A stretch of DNA of 35,614 bases from a virus. A program made the translations under genes and the position numbers. This document shows, one piece after another, positions 6,818 through 34,474 of this stretch (within the stretch, counting starts at the first letter, position 1; each line of letters begins with the position of its first letter). Below the pieces are notes generated by a model. It was not told the DNA's origin. It worked only from the letters and a program-made list of their open reading frames with translations, and ran no database searches. The DNA is taken from positions 1-35,614 of the IMG/VR virus record IMGVR_UViG_3300009504_000016; one strand, given 5' to 3'.

Positions 6818-7702
6818 TCAAATTTTTATGAGTTGTTTAGTAAATTCTACAAAATTATCTGTTACACCGCTCCCACTTGAATATACATGACCATAACCAT
6901 CAGCGATTTCTCTTGCTAATAATGCAAGGTCTACATCTCCATCTTTCTGTCTCCTATAGCTTACATGCATAGTGTTAGTATTAATAACCAAAGCCACGTC
7001 TGCCATATAATCTTTCAATAAAATATCAGCTACTTGGTTTATATATTCCTTTGCGAATGTAGAGCAGACTCTTCTAGTTTTACCCTGAATATCAACATCC
7101 CCAGCGTATACCACTATAGATTCTTTGTACTTTGCTAGTTTAAGATTTTGTAACTTTATTATATTTTCCTGTTGCATCGTAAATCCATTAAATCCATTTA
7201 TAAAGGATTTTGTAAAGGATTCAAGCTTATCATTCATACCCCAAAACACTACATCTAATTTAAATGAATCAGGAAGTTCCAATTTATAGGAATCAAAATC
7301 ATCCGCTAAAACAACAAGATGAAGTTGCTTTTTGGTTGGGTTTAAATTATATAACGATTTAAGTACTTTGTATGCTAGTTTGGCTGCCGACCCGTAATTA
7401 GGTTTTATTATAGATAGTGCATTTTTATATGTTGCAGCCTCGTGACCGGGATGGTGATCTATTATAAAAACATTTTTATAGTCTATTAAGTCTTTATCTT
7501 CAAATACAGCCAAATCTAATATAAAAACCTTGTCATAATCCTCTAAATTATGAGTAGATAACCATTTAGTAAAGTTTACTCTGAATTTTCCTACTGTAGT
7601 AGGCTGACATTCCACTATATCCTTTGGAAAGGTCCATTTCAATAATAAATATGAAACCATACCATCTAAGTCCATATGAGTAAAACACATTATTTTGTTC
7701 AT
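6818..7702 (-). CDS. DHH-family phosphoesterase
   Basis: 294 residues. The N-terminal DHH domain shows the metal ligands in order: THMDLDG (His9, Asp11, Asp13), LDLAVF (Asp63) and IDHHPGH (Asp82, His83, His84). A C-terminal DHHA1-like region has the Gly-rich YGHVYSSGSG motif near residue 270. Members of this superfamily include RecJ exonuclease, nano-RNase/pAp phosphatase NrnA and cyclic-dinucleotide phosphodiesterases. At this length it resembles NrnA-like enzymes rather than full-length RecJ. It overlaps the helicase gene stop by 4 bases, so its expression is coupled to gp41. The substrate cannot be told from sequence; scavenging of short oligonucleotides or degradation of a signalling nucleotide are both possible. 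Confidence 0.85.
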   Translation of the reverse strand: MNKIMCFTHMDLDGMVSYLLLKWTFPKDIVECQPTTVGKFRVNFTKWLSTHNLEDYDKVFILDLAVFEDKDLIDYKNVFIIDHHPGHEAATYKNALSIIKPNYGSAAKLAYKVLKSLYNLNPTKKQLHLVVLADDFDSYKLELPDSFKLDVVFWGMNDKLESFTKSFINGFNGFTMQQENIIKLQNLKLAKYKESIVVYAGDVDIQGKTRRVCSTFAKEYINQVADILLKDYMADVALVINTNTMHVSYRRQKDGDVDLALLAREIADGYGHVYSSGSGVTDNFVEFTKQLIKI

Positions 7703-9066
7703 TTTATACCGCCTAATAGCTTTTCTATAGAAGTTTCTGCCGCACCAACTGTTTGACTACTGGTAAAGTTTTCATTCATTGTTTCTATACGTAGTGTATC
7801 ATAATCAATCTTAAATGCCTCTTTACCAAAATTTTGTCCGAAGCGATTCTTTTGGCACCCCATATGTATTATACCAAGGTCTTTGTCGCTGTCATCACTC
7901 CATATGGCAAACTGTGCATCTGCTGTAAACGACAACCCCATAGATTCGCTTGTATTCTCCAAGCCTGGATTGTCCTTTTTAAATGCGTCACGATTAAGTT
8001 GTGTTGCAGTCACTATTGGACAGGAAAACAGATATGATAATGCACGTAATTGCTCTGTTATTGCTTTAATGTCTGTATATGAATTTCCTGTTACAACACT
8101 AGGGAGAAGCAAATTAACATAATCAATAATAATTACGTCCGGTTTTATGCTTTTCTTTTGCATAAGCTTTTCAATATATGCTCTTATATGACTTATTGTA
8201 ACAGATTTTGGTGCAAATTCTTTGATAAATAAATTACCTTTTGTTTTTTCTGTTTTATGTTTATTAACGAAATCTACTAACGCATCAGTTTCGTTTCGTA
8301 AACTTCTCATTGGAATTTTTGTCAATTGAGAACTAAGCCGATTAGAATACATATCCTCGGACATTTCCAGTGATATCAACACCACGGTTTTATCTTGTTG
8401 TACTATATTAACACCAATATTTCCAAGAACAATAGATTTTCCACTATTTGTTGTACCTGAAAATACATACAACGCTCTTCCATCAGATAATAGACCACCA
8501 CCCAACATTTTATCCAGCCATGAATATCCAGTTGGTATGTATTGATTTACCTTACTTAAACTAGTAATATGTTTATCTATATCATTAAAGTAATCATGTC
8601 CCAGATCATCAACTAAACTAATATTACATGCCTTTGTAAACAAATCTAATGTTTTTGCGGTGCTAGTTTCTTTGTTTACGTCAGAGTAATCTTTAATTGT
8701 CGTTTGTATAGCCTCATATACCGCACGTTCTCTAAAGAACTGTTCTGTATTAGATAGTAATTCATCCTTATTATATTTGCTATCCATCGTTTTAAATGAT
8801 GCTACAACACGTTTAAATGCTTCCTTTTCACTAGTCTTTGATAGATGTGCTTTAATTTCTGTGGCTGTTGGAGTAGTTCCATGGGCTGTATAAAATTCTG
8901 ATATGATTTTAAATATTATTCTAAGATCTTCGTTTTTAAAGAAAATAGAATTTGCAATATCTATTATTGACGTAAGATAGGATTCGTCTATCATTGCATT
9001 ATACGCAATGATAGACTCCATAAAATCCATATCAAGTTCATTTTTTTGCTTTGGTTTATTAGACAT
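7699..9066 (-). CDS. 41: gp41-like replicative DNA helicase
   Basis: 455 residues (T4 gp41 is 475). An N-terminal helical domain (~1-165) is followed by a RecA-like motor: Walker A GTTNSGKS at 204-211, the helicase segment VLISLEMSEDMYSNRLSSQL at ~229-248, and Walker B VIIIDYVNLL near Asp315. These are DnaB-family hallmarks. The enzyme unwinds the fork as a hexamer and is loaded by gp59, encoded downstream at 5813. The start has an AGGAAAT site and lies 17 bases after the uvsX stop. Note that gp41 genes in environmental phages are another known target of split inteins; this one is intact. Confidence 0.93.
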   Translation of the reverse strand: MSNKPKQKNELDMDFMESIIAYNAMIDESYLTSIIDIANSIFFKNEDLRIIFKIISEFYTAHGTTPTATEIKAHLSKTSEKEAFKRVVASFKTMDSKYNKDELLSNTEQFFRERAVYEAIQTTIKDYSDVNKETSTAKTLDLFTKACNISLVDDLGHDYFNDIDKHITSLSKVNQYIPTGYSWLDKMLGGGLLSDGRALYVFSGTTNSGKSIVLGNIGVNIVQQDKTVVLISLEMSEDMYSNRLSSQLTKIPMRSLRNETDALVDFVNKHKTEKTKGNLFIKEFAPKSVTISHIRAYIEKLMQKKSIKPDVIIIDYVNLLLPSVVTGNSYTDIKAITEQLRALSYLFSCPIVTATQLNRDAFKKDNPGLENTSESMGLSFTADAQFAIWSDDSDKDLGIIHMGCQKNRFGQNFGKEAFKIDYDTLRIETMNENFTSSQTVGAAETSIEKLLGGIK

Positions 9067-10694: not shown

Positions 10695-11663
10695 TCAACC
10701 CAATAACTCTAATAAATCACAACTAGTTTCTTTAGTTGGGTTCTTTAATTTCCACCCAACAGATTCGTATAATCGTTCAACGGCTGGTGTGACATTCTTA
10801 TTAAACATAAACACCTTGTCTATGGTTATATTAAACTCTGTAGGGTATCTATCTTTAAATGCAATATTTTTAATATCATATTTATTCTTTTCAACATAAA
10901 GGGTTTTAATATCATCGCCAGATTCTATTTTTTCATACTTGTTAATTAGGCCGTGTATTGTTAATAGATAATTATAATTTATTGCTGCACCAACATGACC
11001 AGGGGTTTTTGTTCCTAGTGTAAATCCATTAGACATGCGTTCATACTTCTCATAATTATTTATTCCTATAGGCGTTGCTATGTCTTCTGCATTCATCGCA
11101 ATATATTTTTCATATGCCTCTTTATATGCGTTGTCGGTAAGTTTTTTATCTCGTGTTTTAAGCATAACCTTTGAAATTTCTTTTATTAATGGCTTTACCT
11201 TTTTTGGTATTTTTATGCTTACTACTTCTACCCCAGTATATTTTATTTCATCATCAGGATCTGGCTTTAATCCTTCTTTATCTAATACATGAAGTATGTA
11301 TCGCTTCTTTTCAAGAAACAACCCAGAGTTACATATAGTTTCACGTTTAAAAACAAACCTAGGATCTTTTATATTACAAGTTTTTCGTGCCCAGTCAGTT
11401 ATTTTTACATTTAATTCACGTTCTATACATTCTGCTATTTCAAGGGCATCCTTTGTAACATTTCCGTCATTATCTGCTAGTTTCTTGTTCAAAAATTTAA
11501 GGACGGGATTTACTGTTATATAAACGCTATTGTGTACGAGAATATCATTTGCAAAATATGTATGTTCCGTATTGTCTTCCATTTCAATATCGTATACATA
11601 TTCGTCATCAAAATTTCCTATACATTCTACAGATTCAATTTCATTTATATGGTAATCAATCAT
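10695..11663 (-). CDS. 43: DNA polymerase gp43, C-terminal half with split intein-C
   Basis: 322 residues. The first 45 are a C-terminal split intein ending FANDILVHN, and the C-extein starts at Ser46 (SVYITVNP). The following 277 residues are the palm/thumb end of a T4-type family B polymerase, including the segment after motif C, the KKRYILHV motif (KxY region) and a clamp-binding-type C-terminus (CDLLELLG). Joined to the N-terminal half encoded at 12664-14769, it gives 857 residues, near the 898 of T4 gp43. The gene has its own start with an AGGAT site 10 bases upstream, just after the endonuclease stop. Without trans-splicing this half lacks the catalytic aspartates. Confidence 0.92.
   Translation of the reverse strand: MIDYHINEIESVECIGNFDDEYVYDIEMEDNTEHTYFANDILVHNSVYITVNPVLKFLNKKLADNDGNVTKDALEIAECIERELNVKITDWARKTCNIKDPRFVFKRETICNSGLFLEKKRYILHVLDKEGLKPDPDDEIKYTGVEVVSIKIPKKVKPLIKEISKVMLKTRDKKLTDNAYKEAYEKYIAMNAEDIATPIGINNYEKYERMSNGFTLGTKTPGHVGAAINYNYLLTIHGLINKYEKIESGDDIKTLYVEKNKYDIKNIAFKDRYPTEFNITIDKVFMFNKNVTPAVERLYESVGWKLKNPTKETSCDLLELLG
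11529..11663 (-). other. Split intein, C-terminal fragment (45 residues)
   Basis: The segment contains the intein block F pattern (EYVYDIEMEDNTEHTYF) and block G (FANDILVHN) with the penultimate His and terminal Asn needed for Asn cyclisation, followed by Ser as the +1 nucleophile at 11528-11526. It supplies the last two beta strands of the HINT fold. With the 121-residue N fragment the whole intein is about 166 residues, a mini-intein without an endonuclease domain. Confidence 0.93.
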
Positions 11664-11672
11664 TATATAATC

Positions 11673-12638
11673 CTATTCATTTAGAAATTTCAAACATCTA
11701 TCAAGTGTTGCATCTTTATCAGCAATATATTCATTTTCCCAAATTACAAGGGTATTAATACCATGTTCCTCTTTAAGTGCTAATAATCGTTGGCGATCAC
11801 AACCCCAAACATCTTTTGCAGTTTTATTATAAACAATATGTTTATAATCTTCATTATATAACCGTGGATTACAGTGCCAATAATCCCCATAGAATTCGAT
11901 TGCTTTATTATTGTCTAAAACATAAAAATCTAAAAATGTATATTTGTTGAGTTTTCGCAAAAACACCCCATATTCTTTATTATAATCGTGATAATAACAT
12001 TTATCATATGAAATACAATCAAAAACATTATTAAATAGTTCTTGACTTATCTTACTAAAAAATTCGCAATGTCTGCTATTATAATATTCTAAATATTTGT
12101 CTTCTCCTAATATACCATACTTACGAATAAAATTATCTATTGTTAATGCCTTTTTATCACAAACGCTATTATATTTTTTTAGCCCGTCTACTTCCCCATA
12201 CTTGGATATAAACCATTCCACTGTACACCCAGCCGTTTTTTGTTTATTACAATAATTGCCCCAAACTGTTAATCCTTTGGCCTTTCCATGTCTTTGTATA
12301 CAATGTTCCTTTGTAATTGATCTGGATTTGTTATATTCATTAAATTGATTTTTATCCCAACCATATTTTTTATGCTTATAATCAAAAGTATTGCTTTCGG
12401 ATTGCTTTTGGCGGTATATATTCCAACGCTTAATACCCTCATCTTCCCCATATTTTTGTATCATGGATTTCTTTGTGATTGAATATTTTTCTCTTAAACT
12501 ATCACAACATATAATTGAAGGATCGTATCCAAATTTATCTTGATATTCTTTAATGTTTATATTATGAGTTTTTAAATGTGTTGGGGTTATCCTCTTATAT
12601 TTTTTAGTACATATTTTACATAAAATATAATTCTTCAT
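11673..12638 (-). CDS. Free-standing Vsr-like (EDxHD) homing endonuclease inside the split polymerase locus
   Basis: 321 residues with a strong AAGGAGACTAAT site. Domains in order: an N-terminal C2H2 zinc finger (Cys7, Cys10, His21, His25); four repeats of ~26 residues with core 'xxFIxKYGExxGLxxW' at about 53-80, 107-133, 138-164 and 165-188, probably DNA-binding; and a C-terminal Vsr-fold nuclease at ~220-305 with LDFY (Asp237), GDYWHCNP (His255) and WGCDRQR (Asp281), then INTLVIWENEY. This matches the EDxHD homing endonuclease family known from fractured split-intein genes and phage introns. It lies between the two polymerase halves, in the same direction. It probably cuts intein-free gp43 alleles to spread the element. 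Confidence 0.9.
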   Translation of the reverse strand: MKNYILCKICTKKYKRITPTHLKTHNINIKEYQDKFGYDPSIICCDSLREKYSITKKSMIQKYGEDEGIKRWNIYRQKQSESNTFDYKHKKYGWDKNQFNEYNKSRSITKEHCIQRHGKAKGLTVWGNYCNKQKTAGCTVEWFISKYGEVDGLKKYNSVCDKKALTIDNFIRKYGILGEDKYLEYYNSRHCEFFSKISQELFNNVFDCISYDKCYYHDYNKEYGVFLRKLNKYTFLDFYVLDNNKAIEFYGDYWHCNPRLYNEDYKHIVYNKTAKDVWGCDRQRLLALKEEHGINTLVIWENEYIADKDATLDRCLKFLNE

Positions 12639-12663
12639 ATTAGTCTCCTTATAGCAATAGCGA

Positions 12664-14769
12664 CTATGATCCTGTATTGCTATAAATACTTATCATTTTG
12701 TCTCCACTTTTGATCTGTTTTGGCGAGACTCGAATTAAATTACCACTACGAATAACCATACAGCCGTGATCTTCAGTCATTATTATCTCTTTTCCATTAA
12801 CACGTATTCGATACTTTTTCTTATTGGTTTTATGTCGAACTATCTTTTTTATCTTTCCTATTTTCACTATTTTATTATTGGAATCAAAGGTTAAACAGTT
12901 TAAATTGGATACTAGTTTAATTTCATGTCCATATTTATCAACTACAATATCAGAAGATGTTTTATCAAATATTTCTCCTATTTGTATTATTCCACAATCT
13001 GTTCGTATTTTAGTTGAATAAATTTCGGAATCCGTATCACCATAAATTGTACAATCTTCTTCTATTCCATATTTATCTTTAACGTAATTGTTTACTATTT
13101 GTGATGCCTCTTTAATACATGATTGACCAGTAAGTGTTACACTAGCCGCAGCATCAATATCATAAAATGGACTATGTTTATTTGCGAATGCACCATATAA
13201 CCTATTCATTAAAATCTTTAATGTATATTGCATTACATCAAGCTCTACAATCATTTTTTTATGCTCTTTATATTTATCAGATCCTGATTTACAGTGTTTT
13301 ATGTCTATTTTACGCTTTTTAAGTTCTTTCTGATTACCCAGACGTTCTGAATATATTCCATCCAATAATTCTGGACAAAACCCCTTTGTCTTTTGTGAAT
13401 ATAATATCTTAGCCTTTGTTATTGCAATATTTTCGCTCTCTATCCATTCCGCAAATTTATTATGTGGTAATTCAAAAATCTTTCCATTAATCATTCTAAT
13501 TTCTATGGTATCTGCTGTTTTATTTATGATCTTTCCTATTTTTGTTTCTGGTGAAATATTAGCACTAATAATTGTATTTGGATATAGACTATTGGCATCG
13601 AAACTTATTATTGCCTCTTTAAGACCACGTTGTGGCTCTCTAACATATCCACCCTCATAATTTGCTACATCACTAACTGGGAATGTTGGTATAATCATTC
13701 CCTTATCTAATGCCTTAAGTGCCATTGCTCCGGTTACAATTGCAATGGTTCCTAACGCCTGTTCAAAGCCTGTGTATCCCATATATGCAAGTTTACGAAC
13801 TATTTGAAGATAATGCAGCTTTTGTTCCAGTTCAACTAATATATTAACGTCTTGTATGTTATACTCACAAAACCCCTGCCAGTCACTATCAGAAAATTTT
13901 GATAAGTCAGACGCTGGTACAACCCGTTTGTTTTGTTTTAATTCTGTTTCTCCTATAAAATCTAGACTATAACGTTCTCTTTTCTCTCTTGCAAACGTTT
14001 TATATACATGAAGATAGTCTAAATGTGATATACCTTTAATATACCAATGATCTTCCGTTTTACCATATTTAGTTAGTACATTTTCTCTGCAATAAAGTTC
14101 TCCAACTGGAGATAATAGCTTTGCTTTGTCTTCGCCCAAAACAACATTTATTCTATTAATTAAATATGGTATATCAAAGCTTTCTGAGTTCCAACCCGTT
14201 ACAATATCTGGATAGTCCCTTTTCCAAAACTTTAAAAATTCTGACAATAATTCTGATTCAGAATTACAACTAACATATGTAACATTGTCCGGTGGTGTAT
14301 ACATACCACCAGACTTACCGCCAGTACCCCATGTATAAAACCGTTCTGTAATTGAATCATATATGGTTAATACATTTATAGCATCCGGTACAAGTTTAGG
14401 GTTTGGAAACTCTCCTGGAGAATATGTTTCTATGTCTAAATAACATATCTTTAATGGATATTCAGAAAATTTTGGATCTTGATTTTTGTTACCAAATATA
14501 TCAATTAAAAATTGCTGCTCCGCCTGTATATTATAAAAAATTCGTTTTAAGCCAGAATTTTTGACATATTTATCCCGATCCCACGAGGTTTTAAATTTCA
14601 TTTTAGCTAATTTTGTATTAAAAATAGACATAGCATCTGCATTAGATTCATTTTCAACGTATATATACGGCTCAAATGGAACGTCTAAAGAAATGCGCTT
14701 TCCTGTGTCATCCCAAGACCAAAGTTTAACATATTTCTTTGGTATATTATAATATATGTTTCTATACAT
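12664..14769 (-). CDS. 43: DNA polymerase gp43, N-terminal half with split intein-N
   Basis: 701 residues: N-extein 1-580 and intein-N 581-701. The polymerase part has Exo I LDIET (Asp112, Glu114; RB69 uses 114 and 116), Exo II TGWNSESFDIPYL at ~191-203, Exo III YNIQDV at ~303-308, motif A DANSLYPNTI from Asp391, motif B KILMNRLYGA from Lys518 and the start of motif C, YGDTD at 576-580. It therefore has proofreading and most of the palm, and stops exactly before the Ser of DTDS. It must be joined to the product of 10695-11663 to be active. It is a family B replicative polymerase that works with gp45, gp41 and gp32. The ribosome site is AAGAAA. Confidence 0.95.
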   Translation of the reverse strand: MYRNIYYNIPKKYVKLWSWDDTGKRISLDVPFEPYIYVENESNADAMSIFNTKLAKMKFKTSWDRDKYVKNSGLKRIFYNIQAEQQFLIDIFGNKNQDPKFSEYPLKICYLDIETYSPGEFPNPKLVPDAINVLTIYDSITERFYTWGTGGKSGGMYTPPDNVTYVSCNSESELLSEFLKFWKRDYPDIVTGWNSESFDIPYLINRINVVLGEDKAKLLSPVGELYCRENVLTKYGKTEDHWYIKGISHLDYLHVYKTFAREKRERYSLDFIGETELKQNKRVVPASDLSKFSDSDWQGFCEYNIQDVNILVELEQKLHYLQIVRKLAYMGYTGFEQALGTIAIVTGAMALKALDKGMIIPTFPVSDVANYEGGYVREPQRGLKEAIISFDANSLYPNTIISANISPETKIGKIINKTADTIEIRMINGKIFELPHNKFAEWIESENIAITKAKILYSQKTKGFCPELLDGIYSERLGNQKELKKRKIDIKHCKSGSDKYKEHKKMIVELDVMQYTLKILMNRLYGAFANKHSPFYDIDAAASVTLTGQSCIKEASQIVNNYVKDKYGIEEDCTIYGDTDSEIYSTKIRTDCGIIQIGEIFDKTSSDIVVDKYGHEIKLVSNLNCLTFDSNNKIVKIGKIKKIVRHKTNKKKYRIRVNGKEIIMTEDHGCMVIRSGNLIRVSPKQIKSGDKMISIYSNTGS
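12667..13029 (-). other. Split intein, N-terminal fragment (121 residues)
   Basis: The fragment begins with Ser (codon TCC at 13029-13027) directly after YGDTD, so the first nucleophile is Ser rather than the usual Cys. It has a block A-like start (SEIYSTKIRTDCG), a long central strand region and block B IIMTEDHGCMVI with the conserved Thr and His. It continues to the end of the reading frame, where the gene stops. The insertion site is the classic polymerase 'pol-c' site in motif C used by archaeal and phage family B polymerase inteins. Confidence 0.92.
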
Positions 14770-19645: not shown

Positions 19646-20311
19646 TTAGTTCTCCTTATTTTCTAGTTCTCCTGTTGATAAATTTATAAACAGAAGCTTT
19701 TTGTAATTTTTATCAACCATATAAAATTTTTCCGGTGGGCCACCACGCATTGTGCGTTTTGTATCCACCATCTGTTTGTCTAAATCATTAAAATTTATAA
19801 GCCAAGAACACATATTATTATTGTTTTTTATTTCTATTGAGTTATTCTTTTCCCAAAACAAACATAAAAAATGAAGTAGGTGTACATTATTAGTTTCTAT
19901 TGCGTTTTTTACAGAAGACTTTAGTTCTATAGGGTTTTTTGGGTCACGATATTTAACCCAACCAAAATCTACAGTTTTAAACATTGACGGCCAATATGTA
20001 TCAGAACCCTTTAAATATTGTTCTTTAATTTTTTTAGCCTCAATTTCTATAGCCAACCCTACGTTTTTGGAAGTTCCCCCTATTATCTTTTGAAAATGAA
20101 TTGGTAGTTTATCACGCTGCACGGTTAAAACCAAATCCCAACCATAATCTTCCTTTACAAAAATCTTACCATCAGATTGATCTGAATTGACTATTACCTT
20201 TTTAGGTGTGGCACCAAAGTTTTTTGTAAACATATTAGCAACAACCAATCCAAAATCATTGCTGATTCTATGCAGGTTGGAATCATATTTACCTCTACAT
20301 CTACCTATCAT
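19646..20311 (-). CDS. Hypothetical protein after the GMP reductase-like gene
   Basis: 221 residues, starting MIGRCRGKYD, overlapping the previous stop by 4 bases. I do not recognise the family. Features include a DYGWDLVLTVQRDKLP segment, AIEIEAKKIKEQY, DTYWPSMFKTVDFGWVKY and a C-terminal GGPPEKFYMV. The spread of acidic and Lys residues could fit a nuclease fold, but no clear PD-(D/E)xK motif is present. Co-transcription with the GMP reductase-like gene and the sugar genes does not point to one role. Confidence 0.6.
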   Translation of the reverse strand: MIGRCRGKYDSNLHRISNDFGLVVANMFTKNFGATPKKVIVNSDQSDGKIFVKEDYGWDLVLTVQRDKLPIHFQKIIGGTSKNVGLAIEIEAKKIKEQYLKGSDTYWPSMFKTVDFGWVKYRDPKNPIELKSSVKNAIETNNVHLLHFLCLFWEKNNSIEIKNNNNMCSWLINFNDLDKQMVDTKRTMRGGPPEKFYMVDKNYKKLLFINLSTGELENKEN

Positions 20312-21297
20312 ATTTTACTCTCTTCCCTTCCACCACTTCCTATATGTATAAACTTACATTTAAGTTTATATTCTGCTAGGTCTTTTGCACCAACATAAGA
20401 ACATGCAGACTGAATACCTTCCTGTATCTCTCTTAATAAAAACTTTACATGGTCGCCTAGGGGCACTTCTTGTGTAACCCCCTCAACGAACTCCGGTCTC
20501 TTATCTCCATTACTTTTATTATGTGCACTTGCAGATCCGCCATATACTTTATATCTGGTACCATCTTTTCTTTTATATACATTACCAGGTGTTTCCATAC
20601 ATCCAGCAAAAAACGACCCCAACATTATAATATCAGAAAACTTAAGTGCTTTTGATATATCACCAACGGTTTTTATTCCACCATCAGCAATTATAACAGG
20701 TCTATTAGTGGTGTCAAATGAATTATATATGTTATCTAAGGCCCAAAGTTGCGGGACACCAACACCTGTATTGGTTCTGGTTTGACACATAGATCCTGGA
20801 CCAATCCCTACCTTTATAGCACTAGCACCCCATTCATATAACGTCTTTGCACCTTCTGGGGTAGCAACATTTCCTGCTATTACATAAATATTAGATTCCT
20901 CGCTTTTAATAAATTCTATTGTTTCCTTCATCATAATAGAGTGTCCGTGGGCGATATCAATACAAAAGTATCGTGCCCCTGCATTGTATAACGCCCTAAA
21001 CCTCTCTTTTGAGTCTCCATTAACACCAATAGACACCCCAGGAATTTGAACTTTGGCTAGTTCATAATCAGAAACCGCCTCTTCAATAGTATTGAACCTA
21101 TGTAGTATTGCCCATGCACCACGCTCACCCATCTCTAGGGCCATCCTAGGTCCTGTTATGGTTTTCATGTTAGCTGATATTACTGGTATATCGTGTATAA
21201 GTGTATTGAGTTTAACAGATATGTTTATATCCTTTCGTGACCTGATATCCGAATATTGCGGCTCGATTAAAACGTCATTAAACGTATATGTCTGCAT
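20308..21297 (-). CDS. GMP reductase / IMP dehydrogenase family enzyme
   Basis: 329 residues from the ATG at 21297 with an AAGGAA site; a TTG two codons earlier is not needed. It is a single TIM barrel with no CBS domains. The catalytic loop is GIGPGSMCQTR with Cys171, and IIADGGI and GSFFAGC form the phosphate-binding region. The C-terminal segment IQSACSYVGAKDL matches GMP reductase (SACTYVGA in E. coli GuaC) better than IMP dehydrogenase (GYTGA). It would adjust the purine pool, GMP to IMP, and with it GDP-sugar supply for the neighbouring epimerases. T4-type late promoters lie upstream. Confidence 0.85.
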   Translation of the reverse strand: MQTYTFNDVLIEPQYSDIRSRKDINISVKLNTLIHDIPVISANMKTITGPRMALEMGERGAWAILHRFNTIEEAVSDYELAKVQIPGVSIGVNGDSKERFRALYNAGARYFCIDIAHGHSIMMKETIEFIKSEESNIYVIAGNVATPEGAKTLYEWGASAIKVGIGPGSMCQTRTNTGVGVPQLWALDNIYNSFDTTNRPVIIADGGIKTVGDISKALKFSDIIMLGSFFAGCMETPGNVYKRKDGTRYKVYGGSASAHNKSNGDKRPEFVEGVTQEVPLGDHVKFLLREIQEGIQSACSYVGAKDLAEYKLKCKFIHIGSGGREESKI

Positions 21298-21303
21298 CAA
21301 CAA

Positions 21304-33854: not shown

Positions 33855-33998
33855 ATGGAAAACCCAAGACATGGAGATAAATGGCTTTGTGAAAAGTGTC
33901 ACACTTGGTGTGTTGCACAAGTACCAAGATGCTCATGGTGTGGGACTAAACGCCCAGAGCCCACCCCACAACCACCTGCTCCACAACCAAAACCATGA
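33855..33998 (+). CDS. Small zinc-ribbon protein
   Basis: 47 residues with AAAGGAGAG upstream. Two Cys pairs, LCEKCHTW and CSWCGTK, form a four-Cys zinc ribbon, and the tail is Pro-rich (PEPTPQPPAPQPKP). It overlaps the next gene's ATG by 4 bases, so it is coupled with the HNH gene. A DNA- or protein-binding adaptor is possible; function not known. Confidence 0.8.
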   Translation: MENPRHGDKWLCEKCHTWCVAQVPRCSWCGTKRPEPTPQPPAPQPKP

Positions 33999-34474
33999 AG
34001 AATAAACGTAAAAAGGTAAAGGTAAAAAAACTAACTTCAGTTCCTATATTGATTAGACGGTTGTTTAGATTAGCATCCCAAATGTGTCGTGAACGAGCAC
34101 ACTTTTCTTGCGAGATTTGCGGCATGAAGCAGGGTGATAAACACGCCAATACGGGTAAACCACAACGTGTAGAGGCACATCATATAATTAGCAGAAAACA
34201 TAAGGATTGCCCCTTAAGATTTGATCTTAGAAATCTTGTTTGTTTGTGCTCAGAACATCATAAGTTTGGCTTATATTCTGCACATGGACATGGTGTTTGG
34301 TTTACAAAGGAACTTGAAAAAATTCGTCCAGATGATGTAAAGTGGATCTTAGAGCATACTAACGATAAGGTTGATTTATCAAATAGAGAAACACTAACAT
34401 ACATTGAAGAATGTCTTATTAAAGGAATCCCACTTAATTTTCCACAAAATACACCAAAGTCATCTCCTGATTGA
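33995..34474 (+). CDS. HNH endonuclease
   Basis: 159 residues. The HNH nuclease motif is EAHHIISRKHKDC (His62/63), NLVCLCSEHHK with Asn80 and His88/89, and a zinc pair Cys39/Cys42 (FSCEICG) with Cys83/Cys85. A basic N-terminal tail (KNKRKKVKVKK) probably contacts DNA. It could be a homing endonuclease or a DNA-processing enzyme such as a packaging or recombination nuclease. The ATG overlaps the zinc-ribbon stop by 4 bases. Confidence 0.8.
   Translation: MKNKRKKVKVKKLTSVPILIRRLFRLASQMCRERAHFSCEICGMKQGDKHANTGKPQRVEAHHIISRKHKDCPLRFDLRNLVCLCSEHHKFGLYSAHGHGVWFTKELEKIRPDDVKWILEHTNDKVDLSNRETLTYIEECLIKGIPLNFPQNTPKSSPD

What the first reader, a model, noticed from the sequence alone, without database searches (positions are those of the whole stretch)
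10695..14769. Fractured DNA polymerase gene joined by a split intein, with a homing endonuclease in the break
The polymerase is encoded by two genes. The first ends with intein-N beginning at Ser directly after YGDTD; the second begins with intein-C ending in HN followed by Ser. Joined, YGDTD+SVYITV restores motif C exactly, and neither half can polymerise alone. A Vsr-like endonuclease gene lies between them in the same direction. This is the fractured-gene arrangement known from environmental phage data for other genes; a case in gp43 of a phage with this gene set is rare and gives a tight three-part mobile element. Splicing in trans would also be a natural control point for replication.
Basis: partly seen in the sequence, partly recalled or inferred. 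Interest (0 to 1): 0.92.

Follow-up and report, generated by a model that had tools for sequence, protein, structure and literature searches.

The report
Split-intein phage polymerase with homing endonuclease
This phage's DNA polymerase is made as two pieces that a split intein should stitch together, with a DNA-cutting enzyme gene lodged in the break; it is a well-preserved new example of a known selfish element that turns out to be common in phages, and its relatives show it jumping between phages and, apparently, healing back into a single gene.

Summary
On the minus strand, a family B (T4 gp43-like) polymerase is broken exactly at motif C: YGDTD | SEIYS... and ...LVHN | SVYITV. The break holds a 121-aa intein-N, a 321-aa endonuclease gene and a 45-aa intein-C. 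All splicing residues are present: Ser1, TxxH, the motif-NX His of Ser-type inteins, HN, Ser+1. The spliced product would be 857 aa.

It is not an artefact and not rare. The same arrangement occurs in isolated phages (Aeromonas Aes508, Tenacibaculum PTm1, Vibrio VPALA; with another endonuclease in Pseudomonas PA5oct/MIJ3) and in dozens of IMG/VR contigs. Its characterised cousin, Aes123 PolB1, trans-splices in seconds in vitro and has a crystal structure (9HTH). This is therefore a new member of a known kind, the 'fractured genes' of Dassa 2009.

New here is population-level evidence. The IntN-endonuclease-IntC block moves as one unit: 4 mismatches in 1,489 nt between polymerases only ~80% identical, with sharp edges. 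Empty, fractured, endonuclease-deleted and fused continuous alleles coexist, so split and continuous inteins interconvert repeatedly; healing of split to continuous is favoured, not proven. Rarity is refuted, replication control untested, and splicing of this copy not tested.

The parts
13030..14769 (-). N-extein: gp43-like family B DNA polymerase residues 1-580 (exonuclease domain, motifs A and B, motif C up to YGDTD)
   Evidence: Pfam DNA_pol_B_exo1 and DNA_pol_B; phrog_262 positions 8-588
12667..13029 (-). Intein-N, 121 aa: Ser1 (S581), block B TxxH (T665, H668), motif-NX-type His (H646); stop codon at 12664-12666
   Evidence: TIGR01445 above cut-off; these residues invariant in 14 relatives; Aes123 His68 equivalence
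12639..12684 (-). Junction: perfect 10-bp inverted repeat TATAGCAATA/TATTGCTATA (12684-12675 / 12659-12650) around the intein-N stop codon, abutting a Shine-Dalgarno AAGGAG (12650-12645) for the endonuclease gene
   Evidence: sequence; folding z -1.47 and not conserved in relatives, so function not claimed
11673..12638 (-). Free-standing EDxHD/Vsr-like homing endonuclease gene, 321 aa: N-terminal Cys2His2-type zinc finger, four ~40-aa repeats, C-terminal Vsr-like nuclease domain
   Evidence: phrog_22677 2.3e-61; ROS_MUCR; invariant D237, E248, H255; AF2 pLDDT 91; best PDB fold match Vsr 1cw0
11529..11663 (-). Intein-C, 45 aa, block F VYDIEM...EHTYFAND and block G LVHN
   Evidence: TIGR01443 above cut-off; 70-81% identical to intein-C of continuous relatives
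10695..11528 (-). C-extein: polymerase C-terminal 277 aa beginning at Ser+1 (SVYITV), palm remainder and thumb, plus stop
   Evidence: phrog_262 positions 581-843, E 2.2e-40

Best explanation
A fractured gp43. The two polymerase genes are translated separately; intein-N and intein-C associate into one Hint fold, Ser1 and Ser+1 carry the acyl and trans-ester steps, Asn45 cyclises, and one 857-aa polymerase with an intact YGDTDS motif C is released. The free-standing Vsr-like endonuclease cuts gp43 alleles without the element at or near the motif C codons; repair from the fractured copy transfers intein-N, endonuclease and intein-C together. Because the insertion interrupts the catalytic motif of an essential gene, only precise loss is tolerated. 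Shown: gene structure, splice residues, homology to a biochemically proven split intein, movement of the block as a unit in relatives, purifying selection on the endonuclease. Inferred: that this copy splices and that this endonuclease cuts.
For: Intein models pass cut-offs on both sides of the break. All splice residues are conserved. The continuous homologue L011 folds as a Hint domain (pLDDT 96); best PDB match is 9HTH, the Aes123 PolB1 split intein (TM 0.86, E 2e-13; profile E 1.8e-26). That intein comes from PolB genes of T4-like Aeromonas phages and trans-splices very fast (t1/2 16 s for its monomeric CLm variant). Same three-gene order annotated in Aes508 and PTm1. Mobility: L116/L117 element 4 mismatches in 1,489 nt, none from -24 to +43 at the edges, exteins mostly 75-85%; L020/L024 97-100% versus ~80-84%. 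Presence on the extein tree needs at least 11 changes, 9 forced by well-supported branches; pairs L015/L055 and L019/L069 are 82-91% identical but fractured/empty. Endonuclease dN/dS 0.08-0.18 in unsaturated pairs and ~0.2 for window/L012, near saturation.
Against: No direct splicing or cleavage data for this copy. Intein-N here is divergent from its nearest relatives (46-56% identity although the exteins are 76%) and has lost the usual SVVG start (SEIYS), so its efficiency cannot be assumed. The native Aes123 intein reaches only ~30% splicing efficiency in vitro. The Vsr assignment rests on sub-threshold profile hits (E 0.4) and a weak fold match (E 0.1, probability 0.96) plus annotation of relatives.
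Confidence: 0.93

Rival explanations
1. The split intein no longer splices; the two polymerase pieces work as a non-covalent complex, as the intein-free 43A/43B pieces of Aeromonas phage 25 do.
For: 43A/43B of phage 25 co-purify and are active (PMC2988022). The window's intein-N is divergent.
Against: Every catalytic splice residue is kept; intein-N would otherwise hang from the active-site hairpin between YGDTD and S; intein-C is 70-81% identical to that of continuous relatives.
Confidence: 0.05
2. Assembly join error or chimera.
For: The window is a 35.6-kb virus record, probably a fragment, and no near-identical copy was found.
Against: Identical order in many independent contigs and cultured phages; all three frames intact; the endonuclease and split intein are orthologous to those at the same codon elsewhere.
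Confidence: 0.01
3. The endonuclease is a passenger or dead, and the element is now inherited vertically (post-homing stage).
For: Window and L012 elements are no more alike than their exteins (HEG 61% versus exteins 76%), so no recent transfer is visible here; many relatives have deleted the endonuclease.
Against: The gene is full length, invariant residues are kept, dN/dS is ~0.2 against L012 though near saturation; recent transfers exist in the family.
Confidence: 0.15

Closest known systems
Aes123 / Aes508 PolB1 split intein with 'putative VSR endonuclease' (T4-like Aeromonas phages; PDB 9HTH)
   Same: Same gene, same insertion codon (DTD^S), Ser1/Ser+1, canonical split site, 120 + 39 aa intein halves, endonuclease of the same family (37% identity) between them
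   Different: In Aes508 gp43 is additionally split upstream with a GIY-YIG gene, and the intein-N fragment is annotated with a group I intron; the window polymerase is in two pieces and its intein has four non-catalytic cysteines
Fractured genes of Dassa et al. 2009 (gp41, NrdA/J, IMPDH, TerL types); paper not held here, known from citations and memory
   Same: Split intein, free-standing Vsr-related endonuclease in the break, phage replication gene; the same endonuclease family also sits in fractured DnaB-type helicase, ribonucleotide reductase and (intein-C side) terminase loci here
   Different: Host gene is the replicative polymerase
MIJ3 / PA5oct split PolB intein (PMC6892783)
   Same: Same gene and insertion codon, split intein, endonuclease gene in the break
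   Different: Endonuclease of another type (annotated Hef-like / HNH)
Tenacibaculum phage PTm1 'intein-containing split DNA polymerase precursor' + 'VSR endonuclease'
   Same: Same arrangement, annotated as such
   Different: Polymerase further fragmented upstream
Nanoarchaeum equitans split Pol intein (from memory; mentioned in PMC10189870)
   Same: Naturally split Ser-type intein in a family B polymerase
   Different: Archaeal, thermophilic, no endonuclease in the break

Membership tests
Fractured gene (Dassa 2009 type) | Conserved enzyme gene broken into two same-strand ORFs by a split intein | tested here: met
Fractured gene (Dassa 2009 type) | Free-standing endonuclease gene between the halves | tested here: met
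   ORF 12638-11673, phrog_22677, homologues annotated VSR endonuclease
Fractured gene (Dassa 2009 type) | Endonuclease of the EDxHD/Vsr-related family (found in about half of the original loci, from memory) | tested here: inconclusive
   Vsr is the best PDB profile hit (E 0.4) and best fold hit (prob 0.96, E 0.1); architecture matches the CapR-like repeats + EDxHD domain described in PMC12350094; below conventional thresholds
Class 1 split intein, Aes123 PolB1-like (Ser-type) | Ser1, block B TxxH, C-terminal HN, Ser+1, split at the usual endonuclease position | tested here: met
Class 1 split intein, Aes123 PolB1-like (Ser-type) | Motif NX histidine specific to Ser-type inteins (Aes123 His68) | tested here: met
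   H646 (intein residue 66), invariant in 14 relatives; motif described in PMC10189870 and PMC13014065
Class 1 split intein, Aes123 PolB1-like (Ser-type) | No cysteine at all ('cysteine-less' in the strict sense) | tested here: not met
   three Cys in intein-N and one in intein-C, none catalytic
Class 1 split intein, Aes123 PolB1-like (Ser-type) | Protein trans-splicing activity | not testable with these tools
   needs expression of both halves
Homing element | Sporadic presence among close relatives, with occupied and empty alleles | tested here: met
   11 changes on the 86-row extein tree; sister pairs L015/L055 and L019/L069
Homing element | Element more similar between phages than its flanks, sharp edges at the insertion site | tested here: met
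   L116/L117, L020/L024, L138/L141; met for the family, not visible for the window copy itself
Homing element | Endonuclease cuts the empty site | not testable with these tools
   biochemistry needed
T4 gp43-like family B DNA polymerase | Exo and polymerase domains over both halves, motif C restored | tested here: met

The most novel reading that the evidence does not exclude
In phage gp43 the split intein is often not an evolutionary endpoint: fractured loci lose the endonuclease and then fuse back into continuous mini-inteins, again and again, so many phage 'mini-inteins' are healed fractured genes rather than their ancestors. In a sample not chosen by the endonuclease, 33 split with endonuclease, 5 with remnants, 21 split without this endonuclease family (15 with a spacer of 185 bp or less) and 15 continuous inteins occur. 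On the intein tree continuous forms need 14 changes (10 forced) with no clustering. L215 matches L216 at 99-100% in the intein but has lost about 1.05 kb of endonuclease gene; continuous L225 joins the intein-N tail and the intein-C leader seen separately in split L221 and L224.
Probability: 0.55. Interest if true: 0.6.

Novelty: new member of a known kind. Interest (0 to 1): 0.42.

Why it matters
As a single locus it adds one well-preserved example of a known element. The relatives make it more useful. They place empty, split-with-endonuclease, endonuclease-deleted and continuous alleles of one intein at one codon of one gene, sometimes with nearly identical sequences, so the origin and loss of split inteins can be tested directly. 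The prevailing view (quoted in PMC12707363) is that split inteins come from continuous ones. Ser-type split inteins are also wanted as protein-ligation tools, of which only four usable on purified proteins are reported (PMC13014065); the loci here supply dozens of candidates.

Tried and rejected
Assembly artefact: rejected (many independent copies). RNA hairpin at the intein-N stop / endonuclease start as a conserved control element: the window folds only modestly better than shuffles (z -1.47), L012 and L013 show nothing, L022 has a strong hairpin (z -7.2); not conserved, not claimed. Recent transfer of the window's own element: not seen. Trees used a damaged window row (a gapped alignment row had been read in its place); repeated with the right sequence, and the counts did not change. 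Dassa 2009 could not be read. A literature search for split-to-continuous reversion found nothing on point, but the library is partial.

Full report
WHAT IS THERE. Minus strand, in order of transcription: ORF 14769-12664 (701 aa), ORF 12638-11673 (321 aa), ORF 11663-10695 (322 aa). ORF 1 is the N-terminal part of a family B polymerase (Pfam exo1 and pol domains; phrog_262 profile positions 8-588) followed by an intein N-terminal region (TIGR01445, 30.5 bits against a cut-off of 24.5). ORF 3 opens with an intein C-terminal region (TIGR01443, 18.8 against 15.6) and continues the polymerase profile at 581-843. The splice junctions are YGDTD | SEIYSTK... and ...ANDILVHN | SVYITV.

SPLICING RESIDUES. 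Ser1, the block A Thr, block B T665/H668, intein-C H44-N45 and Ser+1 are present and conserved in the aligned relatives. His646 (intein residue 66) is invariant and aligns with Aes123 His68, the motif-NX histidine reported as specific for inteins that splice through serine (PMC10189870, PMC13014065). The intein has four cysteines at other positions, so it is Ser-type but not cysteine-free.

HOW SURE IS THE FOLD. The closest relative of the polymerase, L011 (76% and 73% identity in the two exteins), has the same intein at the same codon as one uninterrupted 164-aa mini-intein. AlphaFold2 gives it pLDDT 96 and the best PDB match is 9HTH, the fused Aes123 PolB1 split intein (TM 0.86). The intein profile hits the same chain at E 1.8e-26. 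The Aes123 intein comes from PolB genes of T4-like Aeromonas phages, and the record of Aes508, whose intein-N matches 9HTH without a mismatch over the aligned stretch, is annotated as intein-containing split DNA polymerase with a VSR-like endonuclease between the halves. [quoted passage not shown] t1/2 is 16 s for the monomeric CLm variant (PMC11923092, PMC13014065). So the mechanism is established for a homologue and inferred for the window.

THE ENDONUCLEASE. It belongs to phrog_22677 (E 2.3e-61). It has an N-terminal zinc finger (Pfam ROS_MUCR), repeats of the form F-I-x-K-Y-G-x-x-x-G-x-x-K/R-W, and a C-terminal domain with invariant D237, E248 and H255. The best profile and fold matches are E. 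coli Vsr (E 0.4; probability 0.96, E 0.1), individually weak. The layout is that described for EDxHD/Vsr-type phage endonucleases with CapR-like repeats (PMC12350094). The gene is intact, with low dN/dS in related pairs (0.08-0.18 in unsaturated pairs, ~0.2 for window/L012 near saturation). The same family also occupies fractured DnaB-type helicase and ribonucleotide reductase genes, and the intein-C side of a terminase gene.

HOW COMMON. Of 182 loci fetched by then (some are duplicate contigs), 64 have the full split intein + endonuclease arrangement in the polymerase, 72 have an uninterrupted gene, 5 a continuous intein, 3 a split intein with an endonuclease remnant. Two insertion registers exist, DTD^S (29, the window's) and GD^TD (35), two codons apart. 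Cultured examples: Aes508, PTm1, VPALA, and with another endonuclease PA5oct/MIJ3.

MOBILITY. On a tree of 86 exteins, presence of the element needs 11 changes, 9 of them forced by well-supported branches. L015 (fractured) and L055 (empty) are 91% and 82% identical in the two exteins; L019 and L069 86% and 87%. L116 and L117 differ at 4 of 1,489 element positions, have no mismatch from -24 to +43 around the edges, and their exteins are mostly 75-85% identical outside. L020 and L024 are 97-100% identical inside and ~80-84% outside, L024 having lost two thirds of the endonuclease gene. This is the footprint of homing with short co-conversion tracts, and it covers intein-N, endonuclease and intein-C together. 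The window copy itself shows no recent transfer.

SPLIT AND CONTINUOUS FORMS. A scan keyed to intein-C and the polymerase C-terminus, not to the endonuclease, gave 33 split with endonuclease, 5 with a partial one, 21 split without this family (15 with spacers of 185 bp or less, some genes even overlapping) and 15 continuous. On the intein tree (72 rows) the continuous state needs 14 changes, 10 forced, with no clustering; many branches are weak. L215 and L216 are 99-100% identical in the intein, and L215 joins the end of intein-N to the last bases of the endonuclease gene. Continuous L225 is 99-100% identical to split L221 next to the junction and reads through EVSVD-KEIKATT, the intein-N tail plus the intein-C leader; farther upstream within intein-N the pair drops to ~60%, so it is a mosaic. 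L216 to L215 shows endonuclease loss; for split to continuous the direction is favoured by parsimony (for example L016 inside L015/L018/L019) but formally reversible without more outgroups.

VERDICT. Observation confirmed. It is a new member of a known kind, common rather than rare; replication control by splicing is not supported by anything here. The part worth pursuing is the allele series in the relatives.

Noticed in passing
L111, L112, L116, L117, L120, L121, L123, L124, L126-L131, L134, L138-L144, L146-L152, L154-L156, L160-L162: Same endonuclease family and split intein inserted two codons earlier, after YGD, with Thr+1 (HN^TDS) instead of Ser+1: a second insertion register in motif C.
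   Followed up: partly
L024:7824-8044 (+): A group I intron (Rfam RF00028, 103.8 bits) lies in the same gp43 that also carries the split intein with a truncated endonuclease.
   Followed up: partly
L003 (Desulfovibrio phage 7757), 362-4900: Fractured polymerase whose C-terminal ORF also matches part of intein-N, and no intein-C profile hit: odd or differently split intein.
   Followed up: no
L012:9085-10057: Polymerase C-half is in two overlapping frames: frameshift or sequencing error in this relative.
   Followed up: no
window 12650-12684 (-): Perfect 10-bp inverted repeat around the intein-N stop codon, touching the ribosome-binding site of the endonuclease gene; a much stronger hairpin at the same place in L022.
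   Followed up: partly
window 7699-9066, 20308-21303 (-): The phage's own DnaB-type helicase and IMP dehydrogenase, classic fractured-gene hosts, are uninterrupted here.
   Followed up: partly
window 33995-34474 (+): Free-standing HNH protein (PF13391), possible second homing endonuclease.
   Followed up: no
L138 / L139: Upstream extein and element 99-100% identical but downstream extein only 82%: recombination breakpoint right at the end of intein-C.
   Followed up: partly
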